Assembly: GCF_015223355.1 (NCBI RefSeq)
Contig: NZ_JADFFK010000007.1
Span: 62,001-126,000 of the forward strand
Direction: 5' to 3'
DNA from: Salipiger mangrovisoli
GTDB taxonomy: Bacteria; Pseudomonadota; Alphaproteobacteria; Rhodobacterales; Rhodobacteraceae
Length of the DNA: 64,000 nt
Within the stretch, counting starts at the first letter, position 1. Each line of letters starts with the position of its first letter. Shown piece after piece: positions 29,088 through 48,964 of this stretch. The notes beneath the pieces were generated by a model. That model was not told the DNA's origin. It saw only the letters and a list, made by a program, of their open reading frames with translations, and did not search any database. A program made the translations under genes and the position numbers.

Positions 29088-29100
29088 GTAAATTCTTTTC
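29088..29100. promoter_or_regulatory. Candidate RpiR operator O1a
   Basis: GTAAATTCTTTTC, two mismatches to GAAAATnATTTTC, begins 21 bp upstream of the GMC start. It is paired with the copy at 29151, 63 bp away centre to centre. Confidence 0.5.
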
Positions 29101-29150
29101 AGTTTGGCTGGCATGAGCGCCCGTAAATGCCGTGAAGTCAATAAGGTTGT

Positions 29151-29163
29151 GTAAAATTTTTTC
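29151..29163. promoter_or_regulatory. Candidate RpiR operator O1b
   Basis: GTAAAATTTTTTC, three mismatches to GAAAATnATTTTC, is the weakest of the eight copies. It lies 78 bp before the start of the plus-strand TIM-barrel gene. Confidence 0.4.
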
Positions 29164-29241
29164 GGGTGTTAGCGTCCCGAGAAAGCCCGCTTGCACGAGC
29201 TGCGGGCGACATGTGTTTCCATATGAAAACAGGGATTTCCC

Positions 29242-30147
29242 ATGCAATTCGGCGTCAGCTCCTACAGTTTCCAGCCGCTGCTGCGGCGGCAGGAGATTAC
29301 CCTCGAAGGCGTGTTCGAGCAGATCGCAGCGTCGGGTGGAACGCACATGGAACTGGCCACGCTCACGATTGGTCACGACCTTGAAGCGATGATGGACTAC
29401 GAACTCTACGAAGATGCCGGGACGAGGGGCAGGCTGGAGGCCGCTGCCGCAAATACGGGCATTGTCCTGTCGGGCCTCTGCATCCCGGCGAGCTTCATCG
29501 GTGAGGAGACGGGCACACGGCGCGCGCAGATCGACCGCGCCAAGCGCTACGTCGATCTCTGCGCTGACATGGGCGTTGGCTTTCTGCGCACGGACGTCGT
29601 GCCCTGGGCCTTGCGGCCCGAGAGCTACGCGCAGGTCGAGGCGCTGTTTCCGGTGATCACCGAGGCCTGCATCGAGCTGGCCGATCACGCGGCGGCGCGG
29701 GGCGTGGTGACCAGCATCGAGAACCACGGCTTCCTGATGAATTCGAGCGAGCGCTGCCGCCGGCTCGTCCATGCGGTGGACAGCCCGAACTTCCGCATGA
29801 CGCTGGATGTGGGCAACTTCCTTTGCGTCGACGAGGATCCGCTGATGGCCACGCAGAGCTGCCTCGACATCGCCAGTTTCGTGCACGTGAAGGACTTTCT
29901 TCGGCGCAAGCGCTATCCGGGGCCGGGCTGGCTTGAGACCCTCGGGGGGCGGCATATCGTCGGCACTGTTTTCGGGTTCGGGGACCTCGACACCCATGCG
30001 CTCGTCCGGGCGATCCTGCGCTCGGGATACGATGGCTACGTCTCGCTGGAGTTCGAGGGCAACGAGCCGACGCTCATGGGCTGCGACACCGGGCTGGCCA
30101 ACGTGATCCGCATCTTCAGCGAGGTGAAGGCCGAGCTCGCGGCCTGA
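29242..30147 (+). CDS. Sugar phosphate isomerase/epimerase-like TIM barrel (first copy)
   Basis: A 301-residue AP_endonuc_2 / xylose-isomerase-like TIM barrel. A divalent-metal site is visible: E160 (SIENHG), D189 (TLDVGNF), H215 (FVHVKDF) and E270/E272 (SLEFEGNE). Members of this fold act as epimerases, inosose dehydratases and, next to GMC or Gfo/Idh oxidases, as lyases that split 3-keto glycosides. The ATG at 29242 has AGGG seven bases upstream. It is divergent from the GMC gene, which supports a shared pathway. The reaction is not proven by sequence. Confidence 0.85.
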   Translation: MQFGVSSYSFQPLLRRQEITLEGVFEQIAASGGTHMELATLTIGHDLEAMMDYELYEDAGTRGRLEAAAANTGIVLSGLCIPASFIGEETGTRRAQIDRAKRYVDLCADMGVGFLRTDVVPWALRPESYAQVEALFPVITEACIELADHAAARGVVTSIENHGFLMNSSERCRRLVHAVDSPNFRMTLDVGNFLCVDEDPLMATQSCLDIASFVHVKDFLRRKRYPGPGWLETLGGRHIVGTVFGFGDLDTHALVRAILRSGYDGYVSLEFEGNEPTLMGCDTGLANVIRIFSEVKAELAA

Positions 30148-30180
30148 TCGCGCGGCCTACGACGCGCGCGTTGCGGCGGA

Positions 30181-31011
30181 TCATAGGCCGCGCAGCGCCT
30201 CGACCCGCGCCCGGATGTCCGCGAGCCGCGCGCGGCCGCCGCCGGGCACCTCGACCGAGGCCCAGCCGCTGTAGCCCACCGCGCGCAGCGCCGCGTTGAC
30301 CTTTGCCCAGTCGCAATCGCCTTCGCCGAGTTCGACCTCGAACCCCTTCCAGGGACCCTCGGCATCCATCTTCGTGCGGCTGTACTCCTTGAGATCGACC
30401 CGGCAGATGCGCGCGCCAAGCACCTCGATCCAGTCGGTCGGATAGCCGTTGCGAAGGATGTTGCCGACGTCGAGATACCAGCCCAGCAGCGGATGATCGA
30501 AGCGGTCGATGAAGGCGGCCGCCTCCAACGGACTCAGCAGGAAGTTGTTCCAGACGTTCTCGATGGCGATGCGGACCCCGGTCCGCTCGGCATGGGGCAG
30601 GATCTGCTCAAGTCCGGCGATGGCGCGCTCCCAGGCGGTGGCATAGCTGACCTCGGGGCCGACCGCGCCCGGCACCAGAAGCACGGTCTCGGCCCCGATG
30701 GTGCGTGCGGTTTCCAGTGCCGCGATCATGCCCTGCACGCCGGCCGCGCGCACCTCGGCATCGGGCGAGGACAACGGGTGGCTCCAGTGACGTGCATTGA
30801 TCACGCCGGGCAGGGCCACGCCACTCGCCGCGCTGGCGGCGATGATCTCGTCCAGAGGCAAGTCGCTGGGGGCGTCGATTTCGACCCCGTCGTAGCCGAG
30901 GTCGGCGAGCATGGCAAAGGTCTCGGCGATGCTCTGCTCGGGCGCGTCGATCATGTTCCACTTGAGGCTGATGCGGGCAAAAGGCAACGCGGCGGCGGGC
31001 TGTTGGGTCAT
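30181..31011 (-). CDS. Sugar phosphate isomerase/epimerase-like TIM barrel (second copy)
   Basis: A 276-residue protein of the same fold as its convergent neighbour but clearly diverged. Metal-site positions are E151 (IENVWNN), D181 (LDVGNI), D206 where the family usually has His (RVDLKEY), and E254 (VEVPGG). The His-to-Asp change suggests altered metal binding or substrate. The start at 31011 was chosen by homology and an AAAGGA element about 12 bases upstream; the frame stays open to 31089 but without a ribosome-binding site and through an operator. It could be an epimerase acting after cleavage. Confidence 0.83.
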   Translation of the reverse strand: MTQQPAAALPFARISLKWNMIDAPEQSIAETFAMLADLGYDGVEIDAPSDLPLDEIIAASAASGVALPGVINARHWSHPLSSPDAEVRAAGVQGMIAALETARTIGAETVLLVPGAVGPEVSYATAWERAIAGLEQILPHAERTGVRIAIENVWNNFLLSPLEAAAFIDRFDHPLLGWYLDVGNILRNGYPTDWIEVLGARICRVDLKEYSRTKMDAEGPWKGFEVELGEGDCDWAKVNAALRAVGYSGWASVEVPGGGRARLADIRARVEALRGL

Positions 31012-31074: not shown

Positions 31075-31087
31075 GAAAATTTCTTTC
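31075..31087. promoter_or_regulatory. Candidate RpiR operator O2a
   Basis: GAAAATTTCTTTC, two mismatches to GAAAATnATTTTC, lies 64 bp upstream of the second TIM-barrel gene and exactly 74 bp from O2b. Confidence 0.55.
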
Positions 31088-31148
31088 ATAAATCCGCGGC
31101 ATTTTCGAGGAATCTATTGCCTATTTGGCGCGCTCGCGCCAGAAAAAA

Positions 31149-31161
31149 GAAAATCAATTTC
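31149..31161. promoter_or_regulatory. Candidate RpiR operator O2b
   Basis: GAAAATCAATTTC, one mismatch to the consensus, ends 13 bp before the ridA-family start codon, a position suited to repression. Confidence 0.6.
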
Positions 31162-31174
31162 GCGGAGTTCCGAC

Positions 31175-31573
31175 ATGACCATTCCCGGCATCCACCGTCT
31201 CGACGCAGCCGACGCCCAGGCGGGCGGACAGGAGCGTCCATTCTCCAAGGCCGTGCGCGCGGGGGATTTCGTCTTTGTCTCGGGGCAGGTGCCGACGCGG
31301 GACGGCGAGGTCGTGGTGGGCAGTATCGCGGTGCAGACCGAGGTGGTGATCGAGAACATCAAGGAGGTTCTGGCGCTGGCGGGCTGCGGGCTCGAACACG
31401 TGGTGAAGGTCGGTGTCTGGCTCGACGACGCGCGCGACTTCTCGTCCTTCAACGCAGTGTTCAAGAAACACTTCAGCCTTCATCCGCCAGCACGCTCGAC
31501 CGTGGAATCGCCACTGATGGTCGATGCCAAGGTCGAGATGGATGTGGTCGCCTACAACCCGCTGAAGGGGTGA
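31175..31573 (+). CDS. RidA-family protein
   Basis: A 132-residue YjgF/YER057c/UK114 (RidA) protein. GDFVFVSGQVPTRDGEVV and the C-terminal PARSTVESPLMV (with the conserved Arg that hydrolyses enamines/imines) fit the family. RidA proteins clear reactive 2-aminoacrylate or other imines produced by PLP enzymes. A plausible source here is the DSD1-type enzyme or an amino-sugar imine, both co-regulated. GGAG lies seven bases before the ATG. nagB follows after 6 bp. Confidence 0.9.
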   Translation: MTIPGIHRLDAADAQAGGQERPFSKAVRAGDFVFVSGQVPTRDGEVVVGSIAVQTEVVIENIKEVLALAGCGLEHVVKVGVWLDDARDFSSFNAVFKKHFSLHPPARSTVESPLMVDAKVEMDVVAYNPLKG

Positions 31574-31579
31574 TCGGCG

Positions 31580-32341
31580 GTGAAGGTCCTGATCCTCGGG
31601 GATGCGGAGGCGGCAGCGGGTCGCGCGGCAGAGATCATCGCAGCGCAGGTCACGGCCAAGCCGGCCTCTGTGCTGGGACTTGCCACGGGCGGCACGATGG
31701 AGGCCGTTTACGCGCGGCTGATCGCGCTGCACCGCGCCGGCAGCGCGTCCTTCGCCGAGGCATCGAGCTTCAATCTCGACGAGTACGTCGGACTCGCGGG
31801 GGACCATCCCTGTTCCTACCGCCGGTACATGGCCGAGAAGCTGTTCGGGCAGATCGACATCGCCCCCGAGGCGGCGCATCTGCCGGTCGGCGAGGCAGTG
31901 GACCCCGAGGCCGAAGCGCTGCGCTACGAGGCGGCCATCGTCGCTGCGGGGGATATCGATCTGCAACTGCTGGGGCTTGGCCTCAATGGCCATATCGGCT
32001 TCAACGAACCGACCTCGAGCCTCAGTTCAATCACCCGGCTGAAGACGCTGGAGCGCTCGACGCGCGCGGCCAACAGCCGCTACTTCCCCGACGGCGAAGA
32101 GCCGCCCCGGCTGGCGATCACCATGGGCATCGGCACGATCATGCGGGCCCGCGAGGTTCTGCTCGTGGCCACCGGCACGGCCAAGGCGCGGGCCGTGGCA
32201 CAGGTGATCGAGGGACCGGTCTCGGCGCGCTGGCCGGGCAGCGTGCTTCAGATGCACCGCCACGCGACGATCGTGCTTGACCGCGCGGCGGCCAGCGAGC
32301 TGGCGCTGTTCGACTACTATCTGGATGTGCACCCCGAATGA
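31580..32341 (+). CDS. nagB: Glucosamine-6-phosphate deaminase
   Basis: A 253-residue NagB-type enzyme that isomerises and deaminates glucosamine-6-phosphate to fructose-6-phosphate and ammonia. Landmarks are GLATGGTMEAVY (phosphate loop), FNLDEYVGL with catalytic D67, and LGLGLNGHIGFNEP with H138. It is slightly shorter than E. coli NagB at the C-terminus and lacks the allosteric tail. It starts with GTG at 31580, with AAGGGG nine bases upstream. A 6-phosphogluconolactonase is excluded by the GHIGFNEP motif. It supplies the last step for the nagA-ROK operon 13.7 kb away. Confidence 0.93.
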   Translation: MKVLILGDAEAAAGRAAEIIAAQVTAKPASVLGLATGGTMEAVYARLIALHRAGSASFAEASSFNLDEYVGLAGDHPCSYRRYMAEKLFGQIDIAPEAAHLPVGEAVDPEAEALRYEAAIVAAGDIDLQLLGLGLNGHIGFNEPTSSLSSITRLKTLERSTRAANSRYFPDGEEPPRLAITMGIGTIMRAREVLLVATGTAKARAVAQVIEGPVSARWPGSVLQMHRHATIVLDRAAASELALFDYYLDVHPE

Positions 32342-32371: not shown

Positions 32372-33112
32372 TCAGCGCCGGGCGTCCTGCCGTTCGAGCA
32401 AGCGTCTGAGGTCCGCCACCGTGGCGGCGTCGGTGCGCCGTGCTCCTTCTGGCTGGAAGCCGAAGCGGGCAAGCTTGGGCGCGGCGGGATCGGGCTGCGA
32501 GCCAGAGGCATGGACCTCACGTGGATCGAGTGCGTCGAGCAGGTCAGGCAGGCTCGCGCTCGACACCCCCGCGCCGGGCATGATGCGGATGCGGTCCCCC
32601 GCGTGGGCCATCATTTGCCGCAGCCTGTCCGTCCCCGCGCTGGCCGACGCCGCGCCGCCCGAGCTGAGAATGCGCGAGATGCCAAGCGCCGCCGCCTGAT
32701 CGATCGCTTCGAAGGGGTCCTCCATGAGGTCGATGCAGCGGTGCAGCGTGATGTCGTGTCCCTTTGCGGCGGTCACCAGGCGCTGCATGACCGGCAGGTC
32801 GAGCGAGACGCCCTGCGCCGTCGTGCGTGTCGCGCCGATGACCACCCCGGCGAGGCCGGCGCGCAGCACGGTGGCGATCTCCGCCTCCATCGCCCCGACC
32901 TCCTCGGCGCTCCAGTCGAAGCCGCCGGCGCGGGGCCGGATCATCGCCAGCACGGGCACCGGCGTGCGGGCGGCAAGCTCGATCAGCCCCTGGCTGGGGG
33001 TCAGGCCGCCGAGGGCCAGCGCCGCGCAGAGTTCGATGCGATCCGCGCCGCCGTCGAGGGCGGCGGCCAGCCCGGCGGGACTGTCGATGCAGATTTCAAG
33101 AATGCGGGTCAT
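32372..33112 (-). CDS. cutC: CutC-family TIM-barrel protein
   Basis: A 246-residue CutC protein. LEICIDSPAGLAAALDGGADRIELCAAL, a GGLTPS loop, PVLAMIRPRAGGF, the TLHRCIDLMEDP segment and ILSSGGA are characteristic. The copper-homeostasis label is historical; the fold is a TIM barrel with a conserved cavity and the function is unresolved. Here it is the last gene of the rpiR-M81-MFS-cutC operon, so a sugar-related role is more likely than copper. AAGGAG lies five bases before its ATG. Confidence 0.88.
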   Translation of the reverse strand: MTRILEICIDSPAGLAAALDGGADRIELCAALALGGLTPSQGLIELAARTPVPVLAMIRPRAGGFDWSAEEVGAMEAEIATVLRAGLAGVVIGATRTTAQGVSLDLPVMQRLVTAAKGHDITLHRCIDLMEDPFEAIDQAAALGISRILSSGGAASASAGTDRLRQMMAHAGDRIRIMPGAGVSSASLPDLLDALDPREVHASGSQPDPAAPKLARFGFQPEGARRTDAATVADLRRLLERQDARR

Positions 33113-33131
33113 TGCGTCTCCTTGGCAGGGG

Positions 33132-34337
33132 TCATGAGATGGGACGCCAGCGTTCCAGCGCCACGAGGCCGAGCGCCCCGGCGAGACCGGCCGCGATCCC
33201 CATGACGGCGACGGTGGAATAGCCGCCGAGGCTGGTGCCGAGCCCGAACAGCGCGGCGGCGATCGCTCCGGCGAGAAAGAGGCTGAGGGAGATCAGCGAG
33301 GCCGAGAGGCCGGGCCGATCCGCGATCAGCTCCTGCAGGTAGCCAAGCGGCAGGGTGATCAGCGCCGAGGCGGCGGTGCCCCCCAGGAAGGCCCCTGCGA
33401 TGATCGTTCCCGGCGAGGTGGCAAGGGCAATGGCGCCGAGGTAGCCGGTGTAGAGCACCATGGCGATGGCCAGCGTGGTGACGGTCGAGATGTAACGCGT
33501 GAGCCGCGCCCAGCCGAGCAGGAAGACCAGCTCCATCCTGGCGACGATGCCGACGGTGATGCCGACATCGCCGGTGGTGCCCCCGGCCCGCCCCGTCATG
33601 ATCAGCGGCATCACCGCGGCATGGACATGGATGGCAGAGGTGATCGCCGCGGTGCCCAGAACCCTCAGCGCCACGGCGGGGCGCAGGAGCAGGCCGAAGG
33701 CGGCCAGCAGCGAGACCTTGGGCGGGCGCTGGGCCGGATCACCGCTGCCGCCGCGGGGCATGGTCAGCCTCAGCACCACCAGCACCGCCAGGGCGGCCAG
33801 CGCCGCCACGAGGAAGGCGGGCAGCATCGAGCCGCGCCCGGCCAGCGCGAAGCCGAGGATACCCGGCACGAGGATCCAGGCCGCCGAGACCATCCCGCGC
33901 AGTACCGAGGACATGGCGGCCCGGTCCGGTGCCGCAAGCCCTTCCGAGAACACCCGCCCGGCGGCGAAGAGCATCGGGGTCAGCCCGTTGAAAACCGAGA
34001 TCGGCAGCAGCAGCGCAAGGACGAAGACCGCGGGATGCGGCATCAGGAAGATCGCCGCATAGCCGGCGATGCCGATGCAGGCCAGCCACATCAGCAGGCG
34101 GCGATAGCCGGTGTCCCTGTCGGCGAGCGTGCCGAGATAGATCGAGGAGAGCACGTTGACGATCGCCGCGCTCAGGGTCAGCGCCGAGAAGGCCCCATCC
34201 GAGAGCCCAAGCTCGCGGATCGCCACTACGGATTTGTAGGGGGCGGTCGCAGCGGCGGCGATGCCGCAGCAGAAGACCGCTGCGGCGCAGGCGCGCAGAC
34301 CCGGCGAGGCGCGGAGCGAAGTGAGGATGTCGAACAT
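33132..34337 (-). CDS. MFS transporter, sugar-efflux (SET)-like
   Basis: A 401-residue major facilitator with 12 predicted helices. The loop-2/3 motif region YLGTLADRDTGYRRLL fits MFS, and the overall pattern resembles the sugar efflux transporter group (SetA-like). It could export excess or toxic sugar intermediates, or import a monosaccharide in parallel with the ABC system. It starts 102 bp after the M81 gene and ends 19 bp before cutC on the same strand. Confidence 0.8.
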   Translation of the reverse strand: MFDILTSLRASPGLRACAAAVFCCGIAAAATAPYKSVVAIRELGLSDGAFSALTLSAAIVNVLSSIYLGTLADRDTGYRRLLMWLACIGIAGYAAIFLMPHPAVFVLALLLPISVFNGLTPMLFAAGRVFSEGLAAPDRAAMSSVLRGMVSAAWILVPGILGFALAGRGSMLPAFLVAALAALAVLVVLRLTMPRGGSGDPAQRPPKVSLLAAFGLLLRPAVALRVLGTAAITSAIHVHAAVMPLIMTGRAGGTTGDVGITVGIVARMELVFLLGWARLTRYISTVTTLAIAMVLYTGYLGAIALATSPGTIIAGAFLGGTAASALITLPLGYLQELIADRPGLSASLISLSLFLAGAIAAALFGLGTSLGGYSTVAVMGIAAGLAGALGLVALERWRPIS

Positions 34338-34439
34338 CGGGCTCCCGGTGGATCACGGCCGACGGGCCGCGGCGATACGAAGGGCTCCTCGGCGCGGCGG
34401 CCGGATGGTCCGCGCCGAGAGGTCTTTTGCGCTGTCAGA

Positions 34440-35882
34440 TCACGCCCGGGCGGAACGGGCGGGGGCGGGGGTGAATGCCGCATGCTGATCCCAGGGGTAG
34501 ATCCCCGGCGCGCGGTGCTGGCTGGCAAGACGCGGAATGTCCTGGTTCACCACGCCATCGGTCAGCGCCATCAGGTTGGGATTGGCGATCGGCGCGAGAT
34601 CGGGCGAAAGATAGCCCGATTTCACCACCAGCAGGCCCACCGTGCGCGGATCGAGGCCGAGCAGCGCGAAGTCGTCGAAGTTGTGGTAGGGTCGGCGCCG
34701 CGCCGCGAGAACCACGGTGATCCCGCCGGTCTTCACCACCGCCTGCGCAAAGGCACCGCCCGCGCCTTCGACGAGGTTCACCACGGTAAAGCGCGCCGTG
34801 GCGCTCTCGCCCGCGGGGTCGAGTTTCGCGCCGACGGTCAGAACCAGCTCTGCGCCGACACCGGCCCCGAAACAGGCCGTGACTGCCTCGGGATCGGTGA
34901 TCCCGGCGATCAGCGCATCCTGCCAGTCGCGCGCGATCAGCGCCTTCAGCACCAGCCCGTTGTCACCAACTCCGCCGCCCGTGGGGTTGTCGCCGCTCTC
35001 GGCGAGGATCACCGGCGCGGTTTTCGCCTGCGCCGCGATGTCGAGCATCTCGTCCAGCGGGCCGGTCACCGGGCCGAAGGCGAAAGTGCCGCGCGCGTCC
35101 CAATAGGCCTGTGCCAGCTCGGCGGCGACGGCCTCGGCCTCGGCGGCATCGGTGCCGGTTACGATGGCAGCAGCGGTGCCGCGCGGCTCGTCGGCCCAGA
35201 CGTAGCCGACCATCTGGTCGGCGGACCAGATGCCAGGGCGCGCGTCATGGACGGGCAGGGCGGCATAGAGCGATTTCGCCGGCTCGTCCTCGGTGGACGA
35301 GCGCTCGCCCGGCATCAGCACAGGGATCTTCGCCCAGGTGACAAAGGGCTTCGCGCCGGTCCGCAGGCAACGCAGGAGCATGTCCCAGGCGCGCTGCATG
35401 GTCTCGGCCACGTCGATATGCGGCGCGGTGCGATAGGCGGCGAACATGTCGATCTGGTCGATGATCCGCTGGCTGACGTTGCCATGCAGGTCGTAGCTGA
35501 CCGAGATCGGAACCTCGGGGCCGACCAGATCTCGCACGGCCTTGATCCAGTCGCCCTCGGCATCCCACATGCCATCGACATGCATCGCGCCATGCATGGC
35601 AAGGTAGACCCCGTCGAGCGGCAGCGCGGCCTCGAGCCGCGACAGCAGGTCGGCCTTGAAAGCCTCGTAGGCCGGACGGTCCACCGGCCCGCCCGGCACG
35701 GCACGGGCGTGCAGCAGCGGCAGGAGTTCCACATCGTCCTGCGGCAGGAAAGCGAAATAGGCCGAGGCAGTCAGCTCCGCGCCGCGCATCACGGTGAAAT
35801 CCTCTGCGCGGATGAGCACGGGGTTGTAGGTCGAGCATTCGGTGTGGATGCCGCCGACGGCGATCCTTTGCTTCGTGGTCAT
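34440..35882 (-). CDS. M81 (MlrC-like) metallopeptidase-family protein, first copy
   Basis: A 480-residue M81/DUF1485 protein. GGIHTECSTYNP at the N-terminus, LAMHGAM, SYDLHGN (metal-binding Asp-x-His) and ESGDNPTGGGVGDN mark the family. The only member of known function, microcystinase MlrC, cuts a linear peptide. Most members sit in catabolic loci for small molecules and may be amidohydrolases. It has no signal peptide. The second copy, at 47457, is divergent in sequence. It follows the regulator gene by 72 bp in the same operon. Confidence 0.86.
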   Translation of the reverse strand: MTTKQRIAVGGIHTECSTYNPVLIRAEDFTVMRGAELTASAYFAFLPQDDVELLPLLHARAVPGGPVDRPAYEAFKADLLSRLEAALPLDGVYLAMHGAMHVDGMWDAEGDWIKAVRDLVGPEVPISVSYDLHGNVSQRIIDQIDMFAAYRTAPHIDVAETMQRAWDMLLRCLRTGAKPFVTWAKIPVLMPGERSSTEDEPAKSLYAALPVHDARPGIWSADQMVGYVWADEPRGTAAAIVTGTDAAEAEAVAAELAQAYWDARGTFAFGPVTGPLDEMLDIAAQAKTAPVILAESGDNPTGGGVGDNGLVLKALIARDWQDALIAGITDPEAVTACFGAGVGAELVLTVGAKLDPAGESATARFTVVNLVEGAGGAFAQAVVKTGGITVVLAARRRPYHNFDDFALLGLDPRTVGLLVVKSGYLSPDLAPIANPNLMALTDGVVNQDIPRLASQHRAPGIYPWDQHAAFTPAPARSARA

Positions 35883-35954
35883 GGTGGTCTCTGGCCTGTT
35901 GGTCTGGCGTTGCGGGGCGGGCCGCTTGCGGTGCGGCCTCTTGGGAGGAGGGGG

Positions 35955-36818
35955 TCAGTCGCCCAGAAGCTGCCGGTCGTCGCCGTCGCGGTGGCGGATC
36001 AGGCTTTCCTTGATCCGGCGCAGGGTCGCGGCGCTCGCGGTGCGGTCGGTATAGGCGACGAGATTGGCGAGGATATCGACCACGGCAAGCATGGCATAGC
36101 GGGTCGAGGTGGGGCGGAAGATGTTCTCTCCCTCGGGCAGGTCAACGGCGAGCACGATGTCGGCGGCCGTGGCCACCGGGGAGCGCGACTGGGTGAGCGC
36201 TATGGTCTTCGCGCCCTGGTCGCGGGCCAGATCAAAGGCGCGTACCAGCTCGGCATTGCGCCCCGAGAAGGACGAGCCGATCACCACGTCGCGCTTGGTC
36301 AGTGCCGAGGCCTGCATCATCTGCATGCCATGGTCGGTCGAGGTGGTGATGCGTGCGCCGAGGCGGAACAGCCGGTTCTGCAGTTCGCTGACGATCATCG
36401 ACGAGTTGCCGCCAGAGCCGAAGGCATAGATCATCTCGGCCCGCGCGACGGTTTCCGCCGCGGCCTCGACCGCGGCCATGTCGAGCGTATCGTGCATGAC
36501 GAAGAGCGCCTTCTGCGCCTTGGTCACGATGTCCTCGGCCACCTCGACGGGCGTCGTGGACCGGGCCTCGGGGCGCAGGTAGCGCAGGCCGACGTAAGAG
36601 GACTTGGCCAGGGTGACCTTGAAGTCGGAGAAGGAGTTGCAGCCCAACCGGCGGCAGAAGCGGGTTACCGTCGGCGGAGACACTTCGGCCCTTGCGGCCA
36701 GGTCGGTGATCGAGGCATTGGTGGCAAAGTCGATGTCTTTCAGCACCAGGTCGGCGATGCGCTGCTCGGACTGCGAGAGTTTCAGCCCCTCCTGCATCAG
36801 GGTTGCAAAGATATCCAT
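35955..36818 (-). CDS. RpiR/MurR-family transcriptional regulator
   Basis: A 287-residue regulator with an N-terminal HTH_6 domain (residues 1-78; LSQSEQRIADLVL and SPPTVTRFCRRLGC) and a C-terminal SIS sugar-phosphate domain (about 120-255; IYAFGSGGNSSMI, VVIGSSFSGRNAELVRA). Regulators of this family sense phosphosugars such as GlcNAc-6-P or MurNAc-6-P. It heads an operon and sits beside the best copy of the operator (36880), so it is the likely regulator of the whole locus, itself included. GGAGGGG lies about eight bases before the ATG. Confidence 0.92.
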   Translation of the reverse strand: MDIFATLMQEGLKLSQSEQRIADLVLKDIDFATNASITDLAARAEVSPPTVTRFCRRLGCNSFSDFKVTLAKSSYVGLRYLRPEARSTTPVEVAEDIVTKAQKALFVMHDTLDMAAVEAAAETVARAEMIYAFGSGGNSSMIVSELQNRLFRLGARITTSTDHGMQMMQASALTKRDVVIGSSFSGRNAELVRAFDLARDQGAKTIALTQSRSPVATAADIVLAVDLPEGENIFRPTSTRYAMLAVVDILANLVAYTDRTASAATLRRIKESLIRHRDGDDRQLLGD

Positions 36819-37479: not shown

Positions 37480-38576
37480 TGTCTGAGATCGCGAACATCT
37501 GGCCCGCCCCCGGCACGCCGCTCACCCAGCTTCTGACCCCGCTGCCGGTCATTGACGAGGCGCGCATGGCCGCCAACATCGCCCGCGCGCAGGCACATAT
37601 GGACAGCCTCGGCCGGGCTTTCCGTCCGCATATCAAGACCCACAAGCTGCCGCAGGTCGCGCGTGCGCAGGTCGAGGCGGGTGCGGTGGGGATCAACTGC
37701 CAGAAGGTGACCGAGGCAGAGGTCTTCGCCGAGGCGGGCTTCGACGATATCCTGATCACCTACAATATCCTTGGCACCGCGCGGCTGGCGCGGCTCAAGG
37801 CGCTGAACACGAAGGTCGGGCACCTGTCGGTGACGGCGGACAGCTCCGAGGTGGTGGCCGGGCTTGCGGCGACCTTCGGAGCCGAAGAGCCTCTCACGGT
37901 GCTGGTCGAATGCGACACGGGGGGCAAGCGCTGCGGCGTGCAGACACCCGAGGCGGCGGCGGCGCTGGCGGGCGAGATCGCGGCAGCCGAAGGGCTGCGC
38001 TTTGGCGGGCTGATGACCTACCCGGCCCCCGGCGGGGCGGCGGCGGTCGAGGGCTTCGTGACCGGAGCCAAGGCGCTGCTGTACGCGGCCGGGCTCGATT
38101 GCCCTGTGGTGACGGTTGGCGGCACGCCGGACTTCTATGCCGCCGGAGACATCCCCTCGGCCACCGAGCACCGCGCCGGGACCTATGTCTACAACGACCG
38201 CGCCATGGTGCGGGCGGGCCACGCCAGCCTTGACGACTGCGCCATGCACATCCTCGTCACCGTGGTCTCGCGCCCGACGCCGGACCGGGCGGTGATCGAC
38301 GCGGGATCGAAGGCGCTGACCTCGGACCTGCTGGGGTTCGAGGACCACGGGCTCGTCGTCGAATACCCCGGTGCGCGGATCACCGGCCTGTCCGAAGAGC
38401 ATGGCGTGGTCGACCTCTCGGGCATAGCGGGCGACGGGCCGAAGGTGGGTGACGTGCTGCGGATCGTTCCCAACCACACCTGCGTGGTCACCAATCTCTT
38501 CGACCGCATGGTGTTTCACGACGGCGCGGCCGTGACGCGGGTGCTGGAGGTGGCGGCGCGCGGCACCGTCTGGTGA
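37479..38576 (+). CDS. DSD1-family PLP enzyme (D-threonine aldolase / D-serine dehydratase-like)
   Basis: A 365-residue alanine-racemase-fold PLP enzyme. The cofactor Lys is K53 in RPHIKTHK, and the C-terminal metal pair H333/C335 (PNHTCVVTN) is conserved, as in zinc- or manganese-dependent D-serine dehydratase, D-threonine aldolase and 3-hydroxy-D-aspartate enzymes. It acts on a D-beta-hydroxy amino acid or a related amine and would yield 2-aminoacrylate-type intermediates that the co-regulated RidA could clear. Substrate is not decidable from sequence. It is translationally coupled to the NTF2-like gene. Confidence 0.87.
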   Translation: MSEIANIWPAPGTPLTQLLTPLPVIDEARMAANIARAQAHMDSLGRAFRPHIKTHKLPQVARAQVEAGAVGINCQKVTEAEVFAEAGFDDILITYNILGTARLARLKALNTKVGHLSVTADSSEVVAGLAATFGAEEPLTVLVECDTGGKRCGVQTPEAAAALAGEIAAAEGLRFGGLMTYPAPGGAAAVEGFVTGAKALLYAAGLDCPVVTVGGTPDFYAAGDIPSATEHRAGTYVYNDRAMVRAGHASLDDCAMHILVTVVSRPTPDRAVIDAGSKALTSDLLGFEDHGLVVEYPGARITGLSEEHGVVDLSGIAGDGPKVGDVLRIVPNHTCVVTNLFDRMVFHDGAAVTRVLEVAARGTVW

Positions 38577-38606
38577 ATGCCCATGTGCCGGGCGGCAGGC
38601 GGAAGC

Positions 38607-39494
38607 ATGGACCATCCGGACGAGTTCGCACTTGAGGACGCGGCCGTCGCCCGCCTGTTGCGCGCGCAGGCGCCGGGCTGGGCCGCGTTGCCGGTGCGCC
38701 GGATTGGCTCCTCGGGGACCGACAACGCGATCTACCGGCTGGGAGAGCGGCTTTGCCTCCGGGTGCCGCGAAGGCCGTCCGCGGTGGGCCTGCTGGCCAA
38801 TGAGATGGACTGGCTGCCGCGTCTCGGCAGCCTGCCGCTGGAGGTGCCGCACCTCAGGCTCCGCGGGCGCGGGGACACGGCCTCGGTGCCCGATTTCGCC
38901 GTTTTCGACTGGTTGGAGGGCGGTATCGCCTCGATGGCGGCAATTGCCGACTGGCCAGAGGCGGCGCGGCGGCTCGCGGCCTTCCTCGGTGCTTTGAAGA
39001 AGAAGGATACGCGGGCCGCGCCGCGTGCGGGCGAGAGCAATCACAGGCGCGGCGTGGCGCTTGGGGACCTGAGCCCGGTGACGCGCGATTGCATCGACCT
39101 TCTGGCGGACGAGATCGACGCTGCGCGTGCCCGGCGGCTCTGGGAGTCGGCCTGTGCCGCGGTGTTCCGGGGGCCGGCGGTCTGGCTGCACGGCGATCTC
39201 AAGGCCGACAATCTCATCGCCCGCGACGGCGCGCTTTGTGGCGTCATCGACTGGGGGCTGGCGGCGGTCGGCGATCCGGCGGTGGACTGCGCGGCGGCAT
39301 GGTCCTGGGTCGCCCCCTCGGCCCGCGATGTCTTTCGCGACGCGCTGAATGTCGATGATGCGGAGTGGCTTCGCGCGCGGGGATGGGCGCTCTACGCTGC
39401 GGTCGTTGCGTTGAGCCACTATCGCGGCGGCGGCAACGAGGCGCTATGCCGCCAGTCGCGGCAGACCCTCGCGCGGCTGGACCTGCTGCGCTAA
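38607..39494 (+). CDS. APH-type phosphotransferase (small-molecule kinase)
   Basis: A 295-residue aminoglycoside-phosphotransferase/choline-kinase-fold protein. WLHGDLKADNLI is the catalytic loop with Asp and Asn, and CGVIDWGLAAVGDPAVD the metal-binding DFG-equivalent. As the third gene of a catabolic operon it more likely phosphorylates a sugar or amino alcohol than a drug. Start at 38607 (GGCGGAAGC just upstream) is preferred over ATG 38577, which directly follows the previous stop and has no ribosome-binding site. A strong terminator follows. Confidence 0.8.
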   Translation: MDHPDEFALEDAAVARLLRAQAPGWAALPVRRIGSSGTDNAIYRLGERLCLRVPRRPSAVGLLANEMDWLPRLGSLPLEVPHLRLRGRGDTASVPDFAVFDWLEGGIASMAAIADWPEAARRLAAFLGALKKKDTRAAPRAGESNHRRGVALGDLSPVTRDCIDLLADEIDAARARRLWESACAAVFRGPAVWLHGDLKADNLIARDGALCGVIDWGLAAVGDPAVDCAAAWSWVAPSARDVFRDALNVDDAEWLRARGWALYAAVVALSHYRGGGNEALCRQSRQTLARLDLLR

Positions 39495-39588: not shown

Positions 39589-40713
<1,125 letters not shown>

Positions 40714-40784
40714 GGGAGATTCCTTTCCTATTCAAGCGGTCCGGACCCGAGGGTCCGGACCATGAGAACCCGGACGGGCTCAGA

Positions 40785-41993
40785 TCACTCGAGTTCGTTG
40801 AGCGCGGCGTCGGCCTTGGCCAGCGCGTCGGCGGGCTCGGCGGCGCCGGTGACGACCGATTGCACCATCTCGATCATGACGTTCTGGAAGCCGCGGTAGT
40901 CGGTGAACAGCGGCTCCGGACCGCCGAACTCGATGCCATCGATATAGGGTGCCCAATAGGGGTTCTCGGCGACCAGCGCGTCGATCTTGGCCGAGGGGCG
41001 CAGCGGGGTCAGGCCCTCGGCGAGGTCATACTCTTCCTGCGCTTCCGGCGCGGTGAGGAACTTGGCCAGTTCCATCGCCTTTTCCTCGTAGCCGGTGCCC
41101 GAGAAGACGGCGAGGCTGTCGGTGATCAGCAGCGTGCCGGGGCCCTGGGCTTCGGGGCCAAGCGGCAGGTTGGCGACACCCCAGTCGATGTCGGTGTCCT
41201 GCAGGCGCGAGACGGCGCCGATCGAGGCGTGCATCATCGCCACCCCGCCGTCGAGGAAGATCGCGCGGACCTCGTTCTGCTCGTAGGCGGTCGGGCCTTC
41301 CTCGGAATAGGGGACCAGCGCCTTGTAGGCTTCCAGCGCCGCGAGGTTCTGCGGCGAGTTCAGGACGATGTTGCCCTCGGCATCCACGATCTGGCCGTTG
41401 TTGGTGTACACCCAGTGCAGGAACTGGTGCATGGTGTTGTCGAAGGTCTTGGCGACGAGGCCGAAACCGGCGCTGTCGGTCTTCTCGGTCACGGCCTTGG
41501 CGGCATCGATCACCTCGGCCCAGGTCGCGGGCGGGGTTTCGGGGTCGAGCCCGGCTTCCTTGAAGAGGTCCTTGTTCCAGTAGAACGCCTTGGTCGAGAA
41601 GGCGACGGGCACGCCCCACTGTTCGCCTTGGTAGGTCACCGTGTCGACCACGTTGGGGAAGTAGGAGGCCTTCTCCTCGTCGCTCATCGGCACCGGCTCG
41701 ATCAGGCCGAACTCGGCGAATTCCTTCAGCGTGCGCGATCCGACATAGGCCAGGCCCACCGGGGTGCCGGCGACGGCGAGCGTGGTCACCTTGTCCTGGC
41801 ACTGGCCCCAGCCGACGACCTCGGGGGCAACGGTCCAGCCCTCGTTTTCGGCTTCCCATTGGTCGATATACTTCTGCTGGACCGGGTTCATGTTGTCGCC
41901 GCAGACGATCATCGTGATCTCTTCGGCCATCGCGGGCATCGCTGCGGTCAGCGCGACGAGCGCGGCGCCGGTGCGAAGAAGGGTCTTGGTCAT
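40785..41993 (-). CDS. Extracellular solute-binding protein (family 1, sugar)
   Basis: A 402-residue periplasmic binding protein. The signal peptide ends in MPAMA-E near residue 23. The mature part shows SBP_bac_1 features (W-N-KDLFKEAGLDPETPPATW, AMMHASIGAV). Aromatic residues such as the WAPYIDGIEF segment suit a saccharide ligand. GGAGAG lies eight bases before its ATG. It sits downstream of the two permease genes with a 189-bp gap containing hairpins, so it may be made at a different level from the permeases. Ligand is not known; the operon suggests an amino-sugar-containing compound. Confidence 0.9.
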   Translation of the reverse strand: MTKTLLRTGAALVALTAAMPAMAEEITMIVCGDNMNPVQQKYIDQWEAENEGWTVAPEVVGWGQCQDKVTTLAVAGTPVGLAYVGSRTLKEFAEFGLIEPVPMSDEEKASYFPNVVDTVTYQGEQWGVPVAFSTKAFYWNKDLFKEAGLDPETPPATWAEVIDAAKAVTEKTDSAGFGLVAKTFDNTMHQFLHWVYTNNGQIVDAEGNIVLNSPQNLAALEAYKALVPYSEEGPTAYEQNEVRAIFLDGGVAMMHASIGAVSRLQDTDIDWGVANLPLGPEAQGPGTLLITDSLAVFSGTGYEEKAMELAKFLTAPEAQEEYDLAEGLTPLRPSAKIDALVAENPYWAPYIDGIEFGGPEPLFTDYRGFQNVMIEMVQSVVTGAAEPADALAKADAALNELE

Positions 41994-42182
41994 TGCTTTT
42001 CTCTCCTGTTGGTGCCCTTCGGGGGCGGGCCGGGTTTCTCCGCTCCGGCGGCGGGCCTTTCTGGCGTCCCCTCTTGCGAGGTGGTCTTTCGCTGCCCCCT
42101 TGGCCGGGAGCAGCCGGTCACCCCCTCCCTGGGGGCCTTGGTGGGCCTCCGCGCGCAGCGCGGCAGCCGGGCCTTGCGCCGC
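41994..42182. other. Gap between permease and binding-protein genes
   Basis: This GC-rich 189-bp stretch lies inside the ABC operon. It includes the perfect hairpin CCGCGC-GCA-GCGCGG (42149-42163) just past the permease stop. It may be an RNA-stabilising element or hold a separate promoter for the binding protein. No operator copy and no gene are seen. Confidence 0.45.
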
Positions 42183-43043
42183 CTACTGCTTCACCGCACC
42201 GGCGGTCAGGCCGGCCACGAGGTAGCGTTGCAGCGCGAAGATCAGGATCATGGCCGGCGTGATGCCGACGAAGCTGGCGGCCATGAGCTCGTTCCAGATC
42301 ACCTCCTGGCGACCGAAATAGGCATAGAGCCCGATCGGCAGCGGCATGAACTCGGTCTTGGAGTTGAAGGTCAGCGCGAAGATGAACTGCTGGGCGTAGG
42401 CGCCGATGAAGGTGGTGATGGCGACCACGGTGATCCCCGGCATCGCCAGCGGCAGGATCACCCGGCGCAGGATGTAGAAGTGGCTCGCGCCGTCTACATA
42501 GGCGGCCTCGTCCAGCTCGCGCGGGATACGGCGCATGTAGGTCGAGAGCAGCCAGATCGCGGTGGGGATGAGGAAGGCCACGCCCGGCACGATCATCGCC
42601 CAATAGGTGTTGAGCATGCCGTAGGCGCGCATCAGCCGGAACAGCGGGATCAGCAGCACCGCGCCCGAGAACATGTTCACCGCCAGGAAGGCACCGAGCA
42701 GCGTGCCCGAGCCGCGGAAGCTGATCCGGGCAAAGGCGTAGGAGGCGGGCACCACGAGCAGCAGCACCACAACGGTGATCACCGTCGAGATGAAGAAGGA
42801 GTTGAAGATGTAGCGGCCGAACTCCGGCACGCTTTCCCACATGGTGAAGTAGGCCTTGAACGAGCCGTTCTCGGGCAGGAACTTGTAGGGCGTCGAGAAC
42901 AGCAGCCCGAGCGGCTTCAGCGAGACCAGGAAGCCCTCGATGAAGGGGGCCAGCACGAAGAACAGGAACACGAAGATGCCGCAGTACATCAGGACCACTT
43001 CCCACCAGCGGTAGCGGTCGATCATGGCGTTTTTCTTCATCAT
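42183..43043 (-). CDS. Carbohydrate ABC transporter permease (MalG type)
   Basis: A 286-residue inner-membrane protein with six helices. The cytoplasmic EAA loop for ATPase contact reads ELDEAAYVDGASHFYILRRVILPLAMPG. It pairs with the MalF-type permease encoded upstream; the start ATG overlaps that gene's stop by four bases. AGAGGA lies upstream at suitable spacing. Confidence 0.92.
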   Translation of the reverse strand: MMKKNAMIDRYRWWEVVLMYCGIFVFLFFVLAPFIEGFLVSLKPLGLLFSTPYKFLPENGSFKAYFTMWESVPEFGRYIFNSFFISTVITVVVLLLVVPASYAFARISFRGSGTLLGAFLAVNMFSGAVLLIPLFRLMRAYGMLNTYWAMIVPGVAFLIPTAIWLLSTYMRRIPRELDEAAYVDGASHFYILRRVILPLAMPGITVVAITTFIGAYAQQFIFALTFNSKTEFMPLPIGLYAYFGRQEVIWNELMAASFVGITPAMILIFALQRYLVAGLTAGAVKQ

Positions 43044-43924
43044 GTCGTCATCCTCTTCGACAGCTTGGTGATGGCGCGGAAGTAGAGCAGCGCGAAGGCC
43101 GACAGGAACAGGCAGATGACCACCGCGCGCGCCGCACCCTCGCCGAATTTCTTGGAGCCGAGCGCGGTCGAATAGGTGTCGATGATCATTGTCGTGGTCG
43201 ATCCCGAGGGGCCGCCCTGGGTGAGGATCCAGATCGGATCGAAGGAGTTGAAGGTCGAGATCAATGAGATCATCGACATGGTGATCGCCGCCGGGAAGAT
43301 CATCGGCAGGGTGATGCGGCGCATCCGGTAGAAGCGGCTGGCACCATCTGTCCAGGCGGCCTCGTGCAGGTCCTGCGGCACCGATTGCACGGCGGCGAGC
43401 ATGTACATGGTCACCATCGGCACGCCGATCCACACGTCGGTGATGATCGTCGCCCAGAAGGCGGTGTTGCCATAGGCCAGGAAGGCCACCGGCCCGTCGA
43501 CCAGCCCGAAGCGCTGGAGCAGGCCCGAGATCATCCCGAACTGGCCGTTGTACATCCAGCCCCACATGAAGATGCCGATTGCCATGGGCACGATCCACGG
43601 CGGCATGGTCAGGATGCGAAAGAGCGCGCGGCCGGGCAGGGCGGCGTTGAGCAGCATCGCCCCGCCGGTGCCGATGATCATCTTGATCGAGACCGACAGG
43701 AAGGTCCAAAGGAAGGTGCGGCCGATGATGGTCGCGAACTCCGCGTCGAAGATCTTGGCGTAATTCTCCCAGCCGATGTAGTCGGTCGTGCGGCGCAGCG
43801 AGGCGTTGGTGAAGGACAGATTCACTGTCTGGAGCAGGGGGTAGACGACGATGGCGGCGACATAGGCAAGCGCGGGGATCAGCAGGATCCAGGCAAAGAT
43901 GACGGCTGACTTCTGTCCGGGCAT
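43040..43924 (-). CDS. Carbohydrate ABC transporter permease (MalF type)
   Basis: A 294-residue permease with six helices; the EAA loop is DLHEAAWTDGASRFYRMRRITLPMI and the C-terminal gate region reads SFDPIWILTQGGPSGSTTT, which is typical of MalF/UgpA-like subunits. It overlaps the preceding Gfo/Idh gene by one base (TGATG) and the MalG-type gene by four, so all three are translationally coupled. Confidence 0.92.
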   Translation of the reverse strand: MPGQKSAVIFAWILLIPALAYVAAIVVYPLLQTVNLSFTNASLRRTTDYIGWENYAKIFDAEFATIIGRTFLWTFLSVSIKMIIGTGGAMLLNAALPGRALFRILTMPPWIVPMAIGIFMWGWMYNGQFGMISGLLQRFGLVDGPVAFLAYGNTAFWATIITDVWIGVPMVTMYMLAAVQSVPQDLHEAAWTDGASRFYRMRRITLPMIFPAAITMSMISLISTFNSFDPIWILTQGGPSGSTTTMIIDTYSTALGSKKFGEGAARAVVICLFLSAFALLYFRAITKLSKRMTT

Positions 43925-45084
43925 CAGGCGAGAACCTTCGCGTTCAGGGCCTCGTCGAAGAGATCCCAGGTTCCCGACATCTCGATGACGCTGCGCTTCG
44001 CGCGGGCCTCGTCCATGGCCATGGCCAGCAGCCCGGCCTCCAGCGCGTCGATCACCGAGACCGGCTGCTTCGCGCCGGTCAGCACCGAAGCGATGACGCC
44101 CTTGGCCATTTCCTCGTCGGCGCCGTAGTGCTGCGAGAGGTCGCTGGCCTGGTAGGTCTTGCGCTCGAGCGGCTGGCGGGTGTGGCTGTCGGTGACATGG
44201 AGGAAGCCGCGGACAAAATCGCCCTCGGCCATGCCGCGCGTGCCGATCACCGCGAAGCGGCGGAAGTCGTCGGGCACGTTGAGGTTGGTGTGGAAGTTCA
44301 GTGCCGCGCCGTTCTCGTATTCGACGATGGCCACCTGGTAGTCGATGATCTCGGCATCGCTGTCGAAGACCTTGTCCGAACCATTCCAGCCCGAGGGCTT
44401 CTGCGTGTAGACCCCCAGATCGTTGATGCCGCGGTTGCGCGGATCGTTGGCGGGCACGAAGCTGCGGCGGCCGCCGAAGCTGCTCACCCGCTCGGGGCGC
44501 GCGCCGATGACACCGTTGTAGAGGTCGATGTCGTGGCAGCATTTCTCCAGCATGAAACCGCCGGCCCAGCGGTCGTAGCGGCGCCAGTCGCGCATGAAAA
44601 AGGCACCGTGATAGGGCGGGATGTGCTCGCTCGCCTCGATCGAGACCACGTCCCCCAACTCGCCGCGTGCCTGCGCCGCGCGCAGGTCGGTGTAAAGCGG
44701 CGCATAGCGCAGCACGAGGCCGATCAGCAGATTGTCAACGCCGTACCGCGCGAGCAGCCGCGCCAGCTCGAAACTGTCTTGCTTGGTGGTGACGACCGGT
44801 TTTTCGGAAAAGACCTTCACACCGGCCTCGAAACCCGCGCGGATGTGTTCGAGGTGCATGTAGTTGGGCGAGCCCACCATCAGCAGATCGAGGTCTTCGG
44901 CCTTGAGCAGGTCTTGCACTGTCTCGTATTGCGTGCCCGCCGATATGCCCTTCTCCACCAGCAGGCCCATGCCTGCGGGGGCGGGATCGACGTAGCCCGC
45001 GATCTCGAAACCGGGATGCATTTGCGTGAAAACCTGGCTCAGGTAGCCTAGACGATACCCAAGACCGACGATGCCGACTTTCAT
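43924..45084 (-). CDS. Gfo/Idh/MocA-family oxidoreductase (sugar locus, second copy)
   Basis: A 386-residue oxidoreductase. GLGYRLGYL is a Rossmann loop variant (residues 7-15), E94-K95-P96 is intact, and the catalytic-His region reads FMLEKCCHDIDLYNGVIG. It is longer than, and not closely similar to, the copy at 26407. As first gene of the ABC operon it may act on the imported compound itself, for example as an NAD-dependent 3-oxidising enzyme. A glycosidase activity of the NAD-dependent GH109 kind is an alternative, without direct sequence support. AGGGA lies six bases before its ATG. Confidence 0.86.
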   Translation of the reverse strand: MKVGIVGLGYRLGYLSQVFTQMHPGFEIAGYVDPAPAGMGLLVEKGISAGTQYETVQDLLKAEDLDLLMVGSPNYMHLEHIRAGFEAGVKVFSEKPVVTTKQDSFELARLLARYGVDNLLIGLVLRYAPLYTDLRAAQARGELGDVVSIEASEHIPPYHGAFFMRDWRRYDRWAGGFMLEKCCHDIDLYNGVIGARPERVSSFGGRRSFVPANDPRNRGINDLGVYTQKPSGWNGSDKVFDSDAEIIDYQVAIVEYENGAALNFHTNLNVPDDFRRFAVIGTRGMAEGDFVRGFLHVTDSHTRQPLERKTYQASDLSQHYGADEEMAKGVIASVLTGAKQPVSVIDALEAGLLAMAMDEARAKRSVIEMSGTWDLFDEALNAKVLA

Positions 45085-45160
45085 ACTTGATCCCTGTCCT
45101 TGGTTCGGGCGCTTCAGCCTCTGGCAGCCGATGATGCCGCCCTGCGCTCGCCCGATTTAC

Positions 45161-45173
45161 GTAATTTATTTTC
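45161..45173. promoter_or_regulatory. Candidate RpiR operator O4a
   Basis: GTAATTTATTTTC, two mismatches to the consensus, lies 76 bp upstream of the Gfo/Idh-ABC operon and exactly 74 bp from O4b. Confidence 0.55.
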
Positions 45174-45234
45174 GTAGACTGTGGGTCGGTTTCGTGACAG
45201 TCAATATAAAAATGCGAAAGACAGCGACTATGGT

Positions 45235-45247
45235 GAAATTCATTTTC
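45235..45247. promoter_or_regulatory. Candidate RpiR operator O4b
   Basis: GAAATTCATTTTC, one mismatch to the consensus, lies 74 bp upstream of the nagA start, in its leader or promoter. Confidence 0.6.
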
Positions 45248-48962: not shown

Positions 48963-48964
48963 CC

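What the first reader, a model, noticed from the sequence alone, without database searches (positions are those of the whole stretch)
29088..45247. Eight operator copies in four divergent promoters, spaced 74, 74, 74 and 63 bp
Seen: near-palindromes related to GAAAATnATTTTC occur in pairs at 29088/29151, 31075/31149, 36880/36954 and 45161/45235. Three pairs are exactly 74 bp apart and one 63 bp, close to 7 and 6 turns of B-DNA, so both copies face the same side of the helix. Each pair sits between divergent operons, and the perfect copy is next to an RpiR/MurR gene. Known: RpiR proteins are oligomeric and sense phosphosugars. Inference: one regulator loops DNA at four promoters and controls 22 genes. 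Caveat: I chose the motif after reading the sequence, and the copies carry 0-3 mismatches.
Basis: partly seen in the sequence, partly recalled or inferred. Interest (0 to 1): 0.85.

Follow-up and report, generated by a model that had tools for sequence, protein, structure and literature searches.

The report
Paired operators seven helix turns apart
A sugar-sensing regulator in marine and soil bacteria appears to control a large amino-sugar gene cluster through pairs of DNA sites kept about six, seven or eight helix turns apart, a spacing held across two bacterial orders, which suggests that it folds the DNA between them into a very small loop.

Summary
In detail: eight sites in four divergent gaps, spaced 63, 74, 74 and 74 bp. 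The spacing is conserved. A matrix trained without using spacing, run over 54 stretches (52 from orthologue-bearing sources), gives 63 strong pairs within 15-160 bp: 58 at 72-75, four at 63, one at 83, none elsewhere. A phased pair occurs in 43 of 45 orthologue sources and, by the same matrix, in 0 of 33 loci of a 34-43% identical paralogue group. Dissimilar spacers still fall on 63, 72-75 or 83 bp. Six relatives have the pair before a single, non-divergent operon, and the promoter box lies in different registers between the sites, so neither divergence nor promoter layout explains the spacing. Best reading: an RpiR/MurR-family tetramer bridges both operators in a short repression loop. Binding, tetramer state and looping are inferred, not shown. 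Precedent: Pseudomonas RccR binds two aceE operators with signs of bending; I find its partner at 51-53 bp in 15 of 20 fetched regions. New variant of a known kind. A general RpiR spacing rule is unproven.

The parts
29088..29100 (.). operator 1a, GTAAATTCTTTTC, 63 bp before 1b
   Evidence: 63-bp pair also in relatives L060, L063, L066, L090
29151..29163 (.). operator 1b, GTAAAATTTTTTC (3 mismatches, the weakest of the eight; matrix score 13.0)
31075..31087 (.). operator 2a, GAAAATTTCTTTC, 74 bp before 2b
31149..31161 (.). operator 2b, GAAAATCAATTTC
36880..36892 (.). operator 3a, perfect GAAAATCATTTTC, 62 bp from the RpiR start
36954..36966 (.). operator 3b, GAAAATAATTTGC, 74 bp after 3a
45161..45173 (.). 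operator 4a, GTAATTTATTTTC, 74 bp before 4b
45235..45247 (.). operator 4b, GAAATTCATTTTC
35955..36818 (-). RpiR/MurR-family regulator, 287 aa, HTH_6 plus SIS domain
   Evidence: Pfam; solved relatives 8ju9 and 8k3b, E about 2e-37
29136..29141 (-). candidate -35 box TTGACT between operators 1a and 1b, towards the GMC gene
   Evidence: read; TTGAC at the same place in all 6 rows of the class
31117..31122 (+). candidate -35 box TTGCCT between operators 2a and 2b, towards RidA (weak case)
   Evidence: read; box found in 4 of 13 rows of the class
36902..36907 (+). candidate -35 box TTGACA between operators 3a and 3b
   Evidence: read; TTGAC 6-9 bp after the first site in 40 of 42 rows
45199..45204 (-). 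candidate -35 box TTGACT between operators 4a and 4b, towards GfoB
   Evidence: read; present in 26 of 26 rows
26407..29067 (-). predicted operon: GMC oxidoreductase (27562-29067) and Gfo/Idh oxidoreductase (26407-27474)
29242..30147 (+). xylose-isomerase-like TIM-barrel protein
30181..31011 (-). second xylose-isomerase-like TIM-barrel protein
31175..32341 (+). predicted operon: RidA-like protein (31175-31573) and NagB (31580-32341)
32372..36818 (-). predicted operon: RpiR regulator, MlrC/M81 protein (34440-35882), MFS transporter (33132-34337), CutC (32372-33112)
36994..39494 (+). predicted operon: 161-aa protein without family match, D-threonine-aldolase/BhcC-like enzyme (37485-38576), APH-like phosphotransferase (38607-39494)
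39589..45084 (-). predicted operon: Gfo/Idh (43924-45084), two ABC permeases, solute-binding protein, MalK-type ATPase
45322..49708 (+). predicted operon: NagA (45322-46458), ROK kinase (46455-47375), MlrC-type protein (47457-48962), SDR-like protein (48965-49708; this last label is by eye)

Best explanation
The RpiR/MurR-family protein at 35955-36818 regulates the cluster. A dimer binds each GAAAATnATTTTC-like palindrome, and a tetramer joins two dimers bound about 6, 7 or 8 helix turns apart on the same face of the DNA. This closes a loop of 63-84 bp that holds the promoter or promoters, so that RNA polymerase is kept out (in both directions where the genes diverge) and the regulator also represses itself. 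A phosphorylated amino sugar made from the imported substrate (perhaps of the GlcN6P/GlcNAc6P type, since NagA, NagB and a ROK kinase are among the 22 genes) binds the SIS domain and opens the loop. Shown: the sites, the spacing, its conservation, its independence of gene divergence and of promoter register, and its association with the orthologue. Inferred: binding by this protein, tetramer bridging, repression rather than activation, the effector.
For: Spacing: 63 strong pairs in 54 stretches, 58 at 72-75, 4 at 63, 1 at 83, none elsewhere from 15 to 160 bp; five shuffles gave 0-1 pair each and none at 72-75. 101 of 112 sites above score 18 have a partner 60-86 bp away. Association: 43 of 45 orthologue sources, 0 of 33 paralogue loci. 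Twenty-five spacers under 60% similarity: 63 x2, 72 x3, 73 x12, 74 x6, 75 x1, 83 x1. In L055 the outer site lies 38 bp from the -35 box instead of 28-30, a shift of about one turn, giving 83 bp. Pairs before single operons in L048, L050, L052, L053, L055, L089. Family precedent: RccR footprints on aceE with hypersensitive bands between two sites, apparent cooperativity and suspected bending; tetrameric RpiR structures and proposed MurR bridging; LacI loops of 6-8 turns repress in E. coli in a spacing-dependent way. Phosphate contacts: RccR S139, S183 and S185 are serines here too, S188 is N (aligned by hand).
Against: No binding, oligomer or expression data exist for this protein. At the lower score cut of 8, 17 of 104 pairs within 160 bp have other spacings, as expected of weaker matches. 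Five of the 11 unpaired strong sites lie outside MalK coding matches, and four of these five are at expected promoters with only a weak or no partner (L046, L053, L059, L083). Most spacers centre on 73-74, so whole-turn phasing rests on few steps away from it (63 and 83). LacI prefers about 78.5 bp, not whole turns, so whole turns are not a general law of loops. A 74-bp loop is tight.
Confidence: 0.65

Rival explanations
1. Two independent operators, each blocking a nearby promoter by occlusion, with the constant spacing set by how back-to-back promoters pack.
For: All four pairs in the window lie between divergent genes, and the inner sites lie close to start codons.
Against: Six relatives have 73-83 bp pairs before a single operon, with the outer site 20-70 bp from the end of the upstream gene's match. 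The -35 box lies 28-30 bp from one site in the GfoB class and 6-9 bp in the RpiR class, yet the spacing is the same.
Confidence: 0.15
2. The pair makes a bridged or bent complex, but the regulator activates rather than represses, as SpNanR does, or does both.
For: SpNanR is an RpiR activator whose effector stabilises the tetramer.
Against: By eye the candidate promoters lie between the sites and in the GfoB class the inner site would overlap the start region, a layout that favours repression; start sites are not mapped.
Confidence: 0.12
3. The spacing is inherited, not selected: closely related promoters with too little time for change.
For: Many loci are close relatives, for example the Rhizobium set, and gene order is much conserved.
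Against: Twenty-five spacers below 60% similarity, in four promoter classes, still give 63, 72-75 or 83 bp; length changes do occur but are of 1-2 bp or about one turn within a class.
Confidence: 0.05
4. Another regulator, not this RpiR protein, owns the sites.
For: No binding has been shown, and the pattern also occurs alone elsewhere in the genome.
Against: A pair lies beside the regulator gene in most sources, and phased pairs track the orthologue (43 of 45) and not the paralogue (0 of 33).
Confidence: 0.03

Closest known systems
RccR of Pseudomonas (RpiR family) at the aceE promoter
   Same: Same family; solved RccR structures are the nearest relatives found in the PDB; two operators at one promoter, apparent cooperativity, hypersensitive bands between; partner at 51-53 bp, about five turns, in 15 of 20 regions fetched here.
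   Different: Different motif (TGTAGT/ACTACA), different regulon (central carbon metabolism), effector KDPG, shorter spacing; two of the 20 regions had a partner at 25 bp, not a whole number of turns.
MurR of E. coli (RpiR family)
   Same: SIS-domain repressor; a tetramer is proposed to bridge two sites.
   Different: Sites separated by 17 bp, 47 bp in all, so about 32 bp centre to centre by my arithmetic; MurNAc6P system; the protein here is far below the NCBIfam MurR cut-off (76.1 against 408 bits).
NanR of Vibrio vulnificus and of Streptococcus pneumoniae (RpiR family)
   Same: Phosphosugar-sensing RpiR regulators of amino-sugar use; two adjacent sites (V. vulnificus) and a dimer-tetramer equilibrium with looping discussed (S. 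pneumoniae).
   Different: Sialic acid systems; no conserved 74-bp pair is described in the sections read; SpNanR is an activator.
Lac repressor short loops
   Same: Tetramer-mediated repression loops of 6-8 turns whose strength oscillates with operator spacing in living cells.
   Different: Unrelated protein; engineered spacings; best spacing about 78.5 bp.

Membership tests
RpiR/MurR transcription factor family | N-terminal HTH_6 domain and C-terminal SIS domain | tested here: met
   HTH_6 E 5.8e-19 at residues 2-73 and SIS E 2.5e-16 at 126-252, both above the curated cut-off
RpiR/MurR transcription factor family | phosphate-binding serines of the SIS domain | tested here: met
   three of the four RccR phosphate serines (S139, S183, S185) align with serines, S188 with asparagine (counted by hand). 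The ligand itself is unknown
RpiR/MurR transcription factor family | tetramer in solution | not testable with these tools
   reported for relatives only
HexR or MurR (named orthologue groups) | score above the NCBIfam cut-off | tested here: not met
   HexR 179.8 against 296, MurR 76.1 against 408 bits
RccR | TGTAGT-N3-ACTACA operator | tested here: not met
   0 matches of the exact 15-bp pattern in the window's own genome
Short-loop repressor systems | two operators for one regulator at a fixed helical phase | tested here: met
   63, 72-75 or 83 bp in 25 dissimilar spacers and in 63 of 63 strong pairs
Short-loop repressor systems | promoter between or overlapping the operators | tested here: inconclusive
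   conserved TTGAC box between the sites in three of four classes; no start sites mapped
Short-loop repressor systems | bivalent protein and physical loop | not testable with these tools
   needs footprinting, spacer mutants or single-molecule work

The most novel reading that the evidence does not exclude
Whole-turn spacing of operator pairs is a built-in property of RpiR tetramers rather than of one regulon: about 3 turns (MurR), 5 (RccR aceE) and 6, 7 or 8 here. The tetramer would hold its two DNA-binding dimers in a fixed rotation and act as a short-loop clamp whose ring size changes in steps of one helix turn, giving these sugar-phosphate sensors a common looping mechanism.
Probability: 0.3. 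Interest if true: 0.72.

Novelty: new variant of a known kind. Interest (0 to 1): 0.58.

Why it matters
RpiR-family proteins are widespread sensors of sugar phosphates, and the SpNanR preprint treats how their tetramers act on DNA as open. This regulon supplies many natural promoters in which evolution has already varied the spacing (63, 72-75, 83 bp), in divergent and in single-operon form, so loop closure can be tested with simple spacer inserts. The phased pair is also a far more specific signature for finding targets than the single 13-bp motif, which has 79 matches within 2 mismatches in this genome.

Tried and rejected
Rejected: chance. The five shuffles gave 18-23 sites, 0-1 pair and no pair at 72-75. 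The 60 permuted matrices gave 18 pairs in all, 11 of them at 72-75 (up to 6 for one matrix); I take this to be because some permutations still match the true AT-rich sites, so this control is weaker than the shuffles. Rejected: C11:247480 as a further target.

Inconclusive: a wider RpiR spacing rule. In 33 upstream regions of the paralogue group (31 plus L096 and L097) I took the two best palindromes to a loose motif: of the 20 with a second score of at least 8, 8 were within 1.5 bp of whole turns, against about 7 expected; of the 8 best-scoring, 6 were in phase, two of these being the same promoter in sister genomes. Earlier looks at the group with looser motifs showed pairs at 63, 73 and 83 bp (L007/L013, L026, L036) and also at 20, 37, 47, 50 and 52 bp; so '0 of 33' holds for the matrix and cut-offs used there, not for every loose match.

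Rows dropped: L043/L044 are the same genome as L090 and were left out but not. The spacers come from pairs sought only at 60-86 bp with both scores above 8 (90 pairs), from which I dropped three at 60, 68 and 80 bp; over the whole range to 160 bp at that cut, 87 of 104 pairs were at 63, 72-75 or 83.

Led nowhere: eight literature searches listed no paper that I recognised as describing this regulon; they cover open-licence papers and I saw listings except for the four papers opened. No structure was predicted. The regulator alignment was spoiled for nine rows by wrong-strand translation; I draw no conclusion from it.
Full report
What was checked. All eight near-palindromes are at the given coordinates, in pairs 63, 74, 74 and 74 bp apart, each pair between divergent ORFs. 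The window has 11 matches within 3 mismatches against a mean of 3.62 in shuffles. In the 6.35-Mb genome 5 places lie within 1 mismatch, four of them here, and 79 within 2; only 50 of those were listed, and among them the only two within 1 kb of each other are 36880 and 36954.

The regulator. The gene at 35955-36818 encodes 287 aa with HTH_6 and SIS domains. Its nearest solved relatives are 8ju9 and 8k3b (E 1.8e-37 and 2.1e-37, residues 4-273); the SpNanR preprint names 8JU9 as P. aeruginosa RccR. It scores below the NCBIfam cut-offs for HexR and MurR, so I give it no orthologue name. Of the RccR serines that hold the phosphate (passages of PMC10810197), S139, S183 and S185 align with serines and S188 with asparagine (counted by hand).

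Relatives. Orthologues came from 394 genomes of the family (stretches fetched) and from named contigs: Alloyangia, Pseudooceanicola, Pseudoruegeria, Allosediminivita, Rhizobium, Neorhizobium, Ciceribacter, Peteryoungia, Martelella, Cucumibacter, Roseibium and others, at 48-93% identity. A search of 385 genomes of the class at E 1e-40 added only 36-42% paralogues. Much of the gene cluster is shared, with rearrangements.

Spacing test. A symmetric matrix was built from 37 dissimilar sites within 1 mismatch of the motif, ignoring spacing. In 54 stretches (window and L045-L097; 52 from orthologue-bearing sources, two, L096 and L097, from paralogue loci) the pairs with both scores above 12 and 15-160 bp apart number 63: 63 bp 4, 72 bp 9, 73 bp 22, 74 bp 26, 75 bp 1, 83 bp 1. 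Five dinucleotide shuffles gave 18-23 sites and 0-1 pair, none at 72-75. Sixty permuted matrices gave 18 pairs in all, 11 at 72-75. Of 112 sites above score 18, 101 have a partner (score above 8) 60-86 bp away. Of the 11 without, six lie inside the MalK coding matches; four others (L046, L053, L059, L083) lie at expected promoters, three of them with a sub-threshold partner at 72 or 73 bp (scores 7.6, 6.3 and 7.7), and one lies elsewhere in L083. At the lower cut of 8 (56 stretches, L043/L044 included), 87 of 104 pairs within 160 bp are at 63, 72-75 or 83.

Independence. Pairs at 60-86 bp with both scores above 8 number 90; I dropped three (60, 68 and 80 bp) and grouped the other 87 by neighbouring gene. 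Keeping spacers under 60% similarity within a class leaves 25: 63 twice, 72 three times, 73 twelve times, 74 six times, 75 once, 83 once. All lie within 1.5 bp of 6, 7 or 8 turns of 10.5 bp. One in three random spacings would lie that near, and most of the 25 share one mode at 73-74, so whole-turn phasing rests on the narrowness of that mode and on the few steps away from it (63 in one class, 83 in one locus). I call it likely, not proven.

Not a by-product of divergence. In L048, L050 and L052 the pair lies between ROK and GfoB pointing the same way, in L053 and L055 likewise on the other strand, and in L089 between CutC and GfoB. The outer site lies 20-70 bp from the end of the upstream gene's match, which leaves no room for a divergent gene.

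Not a by-product of the promoter. A TTGAC box lies between the sites. In the GfoB class it is 28-30 bp from the outer site (38 in L055) and 31-32 from the inner, in 26 of 26 rows; in the RpiR/161-aa class 6-9 and 51-54, in 40 of 42 rows (the other two are one genome); in the GMC class 9 and 41, in 6 of 6; in the RidA class the box was found in 4 of 13 rows. The spacing is alike in spite of the different registers. -10 elements were judged by eye; no start sites are known.

Link of regulator and motif. With both scores above 8, one above 12, and a distance of 62-64, 72-75 or 83-84 bp, 43 of 45 orthologue sources have at least one pair; the two without are L086, whose contig begins at the regulator gene, and L083, where the partner at 73 bp scores 7.7. 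None of 33 paralogue loci (34-43% identity) has one. Most paralogue loci hold only 1.5 kb on each side, against up to 10-20 kb for orthologues, so the comparison is fair for the pair beside the regulator gene and less so for the rest. Looser motifs do find some paralogue pairs, in and out of phase.

Mechanism. The simplest reading is a tetramer that bridges two operators and closes a loop of 6-8 turns around the promoter. From print: RccR footprints on aceE show two protected sites, hypersensitive bands between, apparent cooperativity and suspected bending (PMC5489143, passages and section 10 read); a MurR tetramer is proposed to bridge two sites spanning 47 bp, and looping is discussed for SpNanR, whose extended tetramer measures about 160 A (PMC12713135, passages and sections 12 and 13 read). 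Seventy-four bp of straight DNA is about 250 A, so a tetramer of that size could reach both sites only if the DNA bends (my inference). LacI loops of 6-8 turns repress in E. coli with an oscillation by spacing (PMC5081198, passages and section 17 read). I add one measurement: exact RccR motifs with a TTT or AAA centre were found at 22 sites in a sample of the phylum; in 20 regions fetched around 21 of them, 15 have a partner at 51-53 bp, about five turns, two have one at 25 bp, and three have none within 200 bp. The family is unnamed; I take it for Pseudomonas from an AceE-like coding start beside the sites in sequences printed (recalled). The paper's '68 bp apart' fits the outer span (about 67 bp) of these pairs; I did not have the SBW25 sequence itself.

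What the regulon is for. It holds a sugar-type ABC transporter, two Gfo/Idh dehydrogenases, a GMC oxidoreductase, two TIM-barrel isomerase-like proteins, NagA, NagB, a ROK kinase, two MlrC/M81 proteins, a D-threonine-aldolase-like enzyme, RidA, CutC and others. NagA and NagB pass an NCBIfam cut-off; the ROK and MlrC matches do not. An amino sugar or derivative is the likely substrate and its phosphate the likely inducer; this is inference.

Novelty. Looped repression and paired RpiR operators are known kinds. A conserved 63/74/83-bp pair used at four promoters by one RpiR regulator and kept across two orders was not seen in eight searches of open-licence papers (listings, with four papers opened in part). 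I file it as a new variant of a known kind.

Noticed in passing
36994-37479 (+): A 161-aa protein beside the regulator's operator pair has no Pfam or NCBIfam match yet is found in most of the relative loci: a conserved protein of unknown role.
   Followed up: no
34440-35882 (-) and 47457-48962 (+): Two different MlrC/M81-type proteins lie in one predicted sugar regulon; both are below the NCBIfam microcystinase cut-off. Their substrate here is unknown.
   Followed up: no
L012:7481-7493 (genome contig C11:247480): A perfect GAAAATTATTTTC lies inside the longer palindrome CCCCAGAAAATTATTTTCTGTGGGG, upstream of an exonuclease-III-like ORF (label by eye), with no partner site; probably unrelated to the regulon.
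   Followed up: partly
L013:8645-8740 (paralogue at G000 C4:81689): Upstream of the 41% paralogue lies GTAACGCAGTTAC, 63 and 83 bp from two weaker sites, suggesting a GTAA-N5-TTAC motif and perhaps phased pairs in that clade too; the group-wide test was inconclusive.
   Followed up: partly
L066:10001-10862 (Alloyangia mangrovi): The regulator reads like its relatives for about 48 residues and then departs, and the protein match starts at 10143: a frameshift in the gene or in the draft assembly. Its operator pairs are present.
   Followed up: no
36893-36960: Between operators 3a and 3b there are further TTTTCG and CGAAAA half-sites, also seen in Alloyangia relatives; possibly a weak third site.
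   Followed up: no
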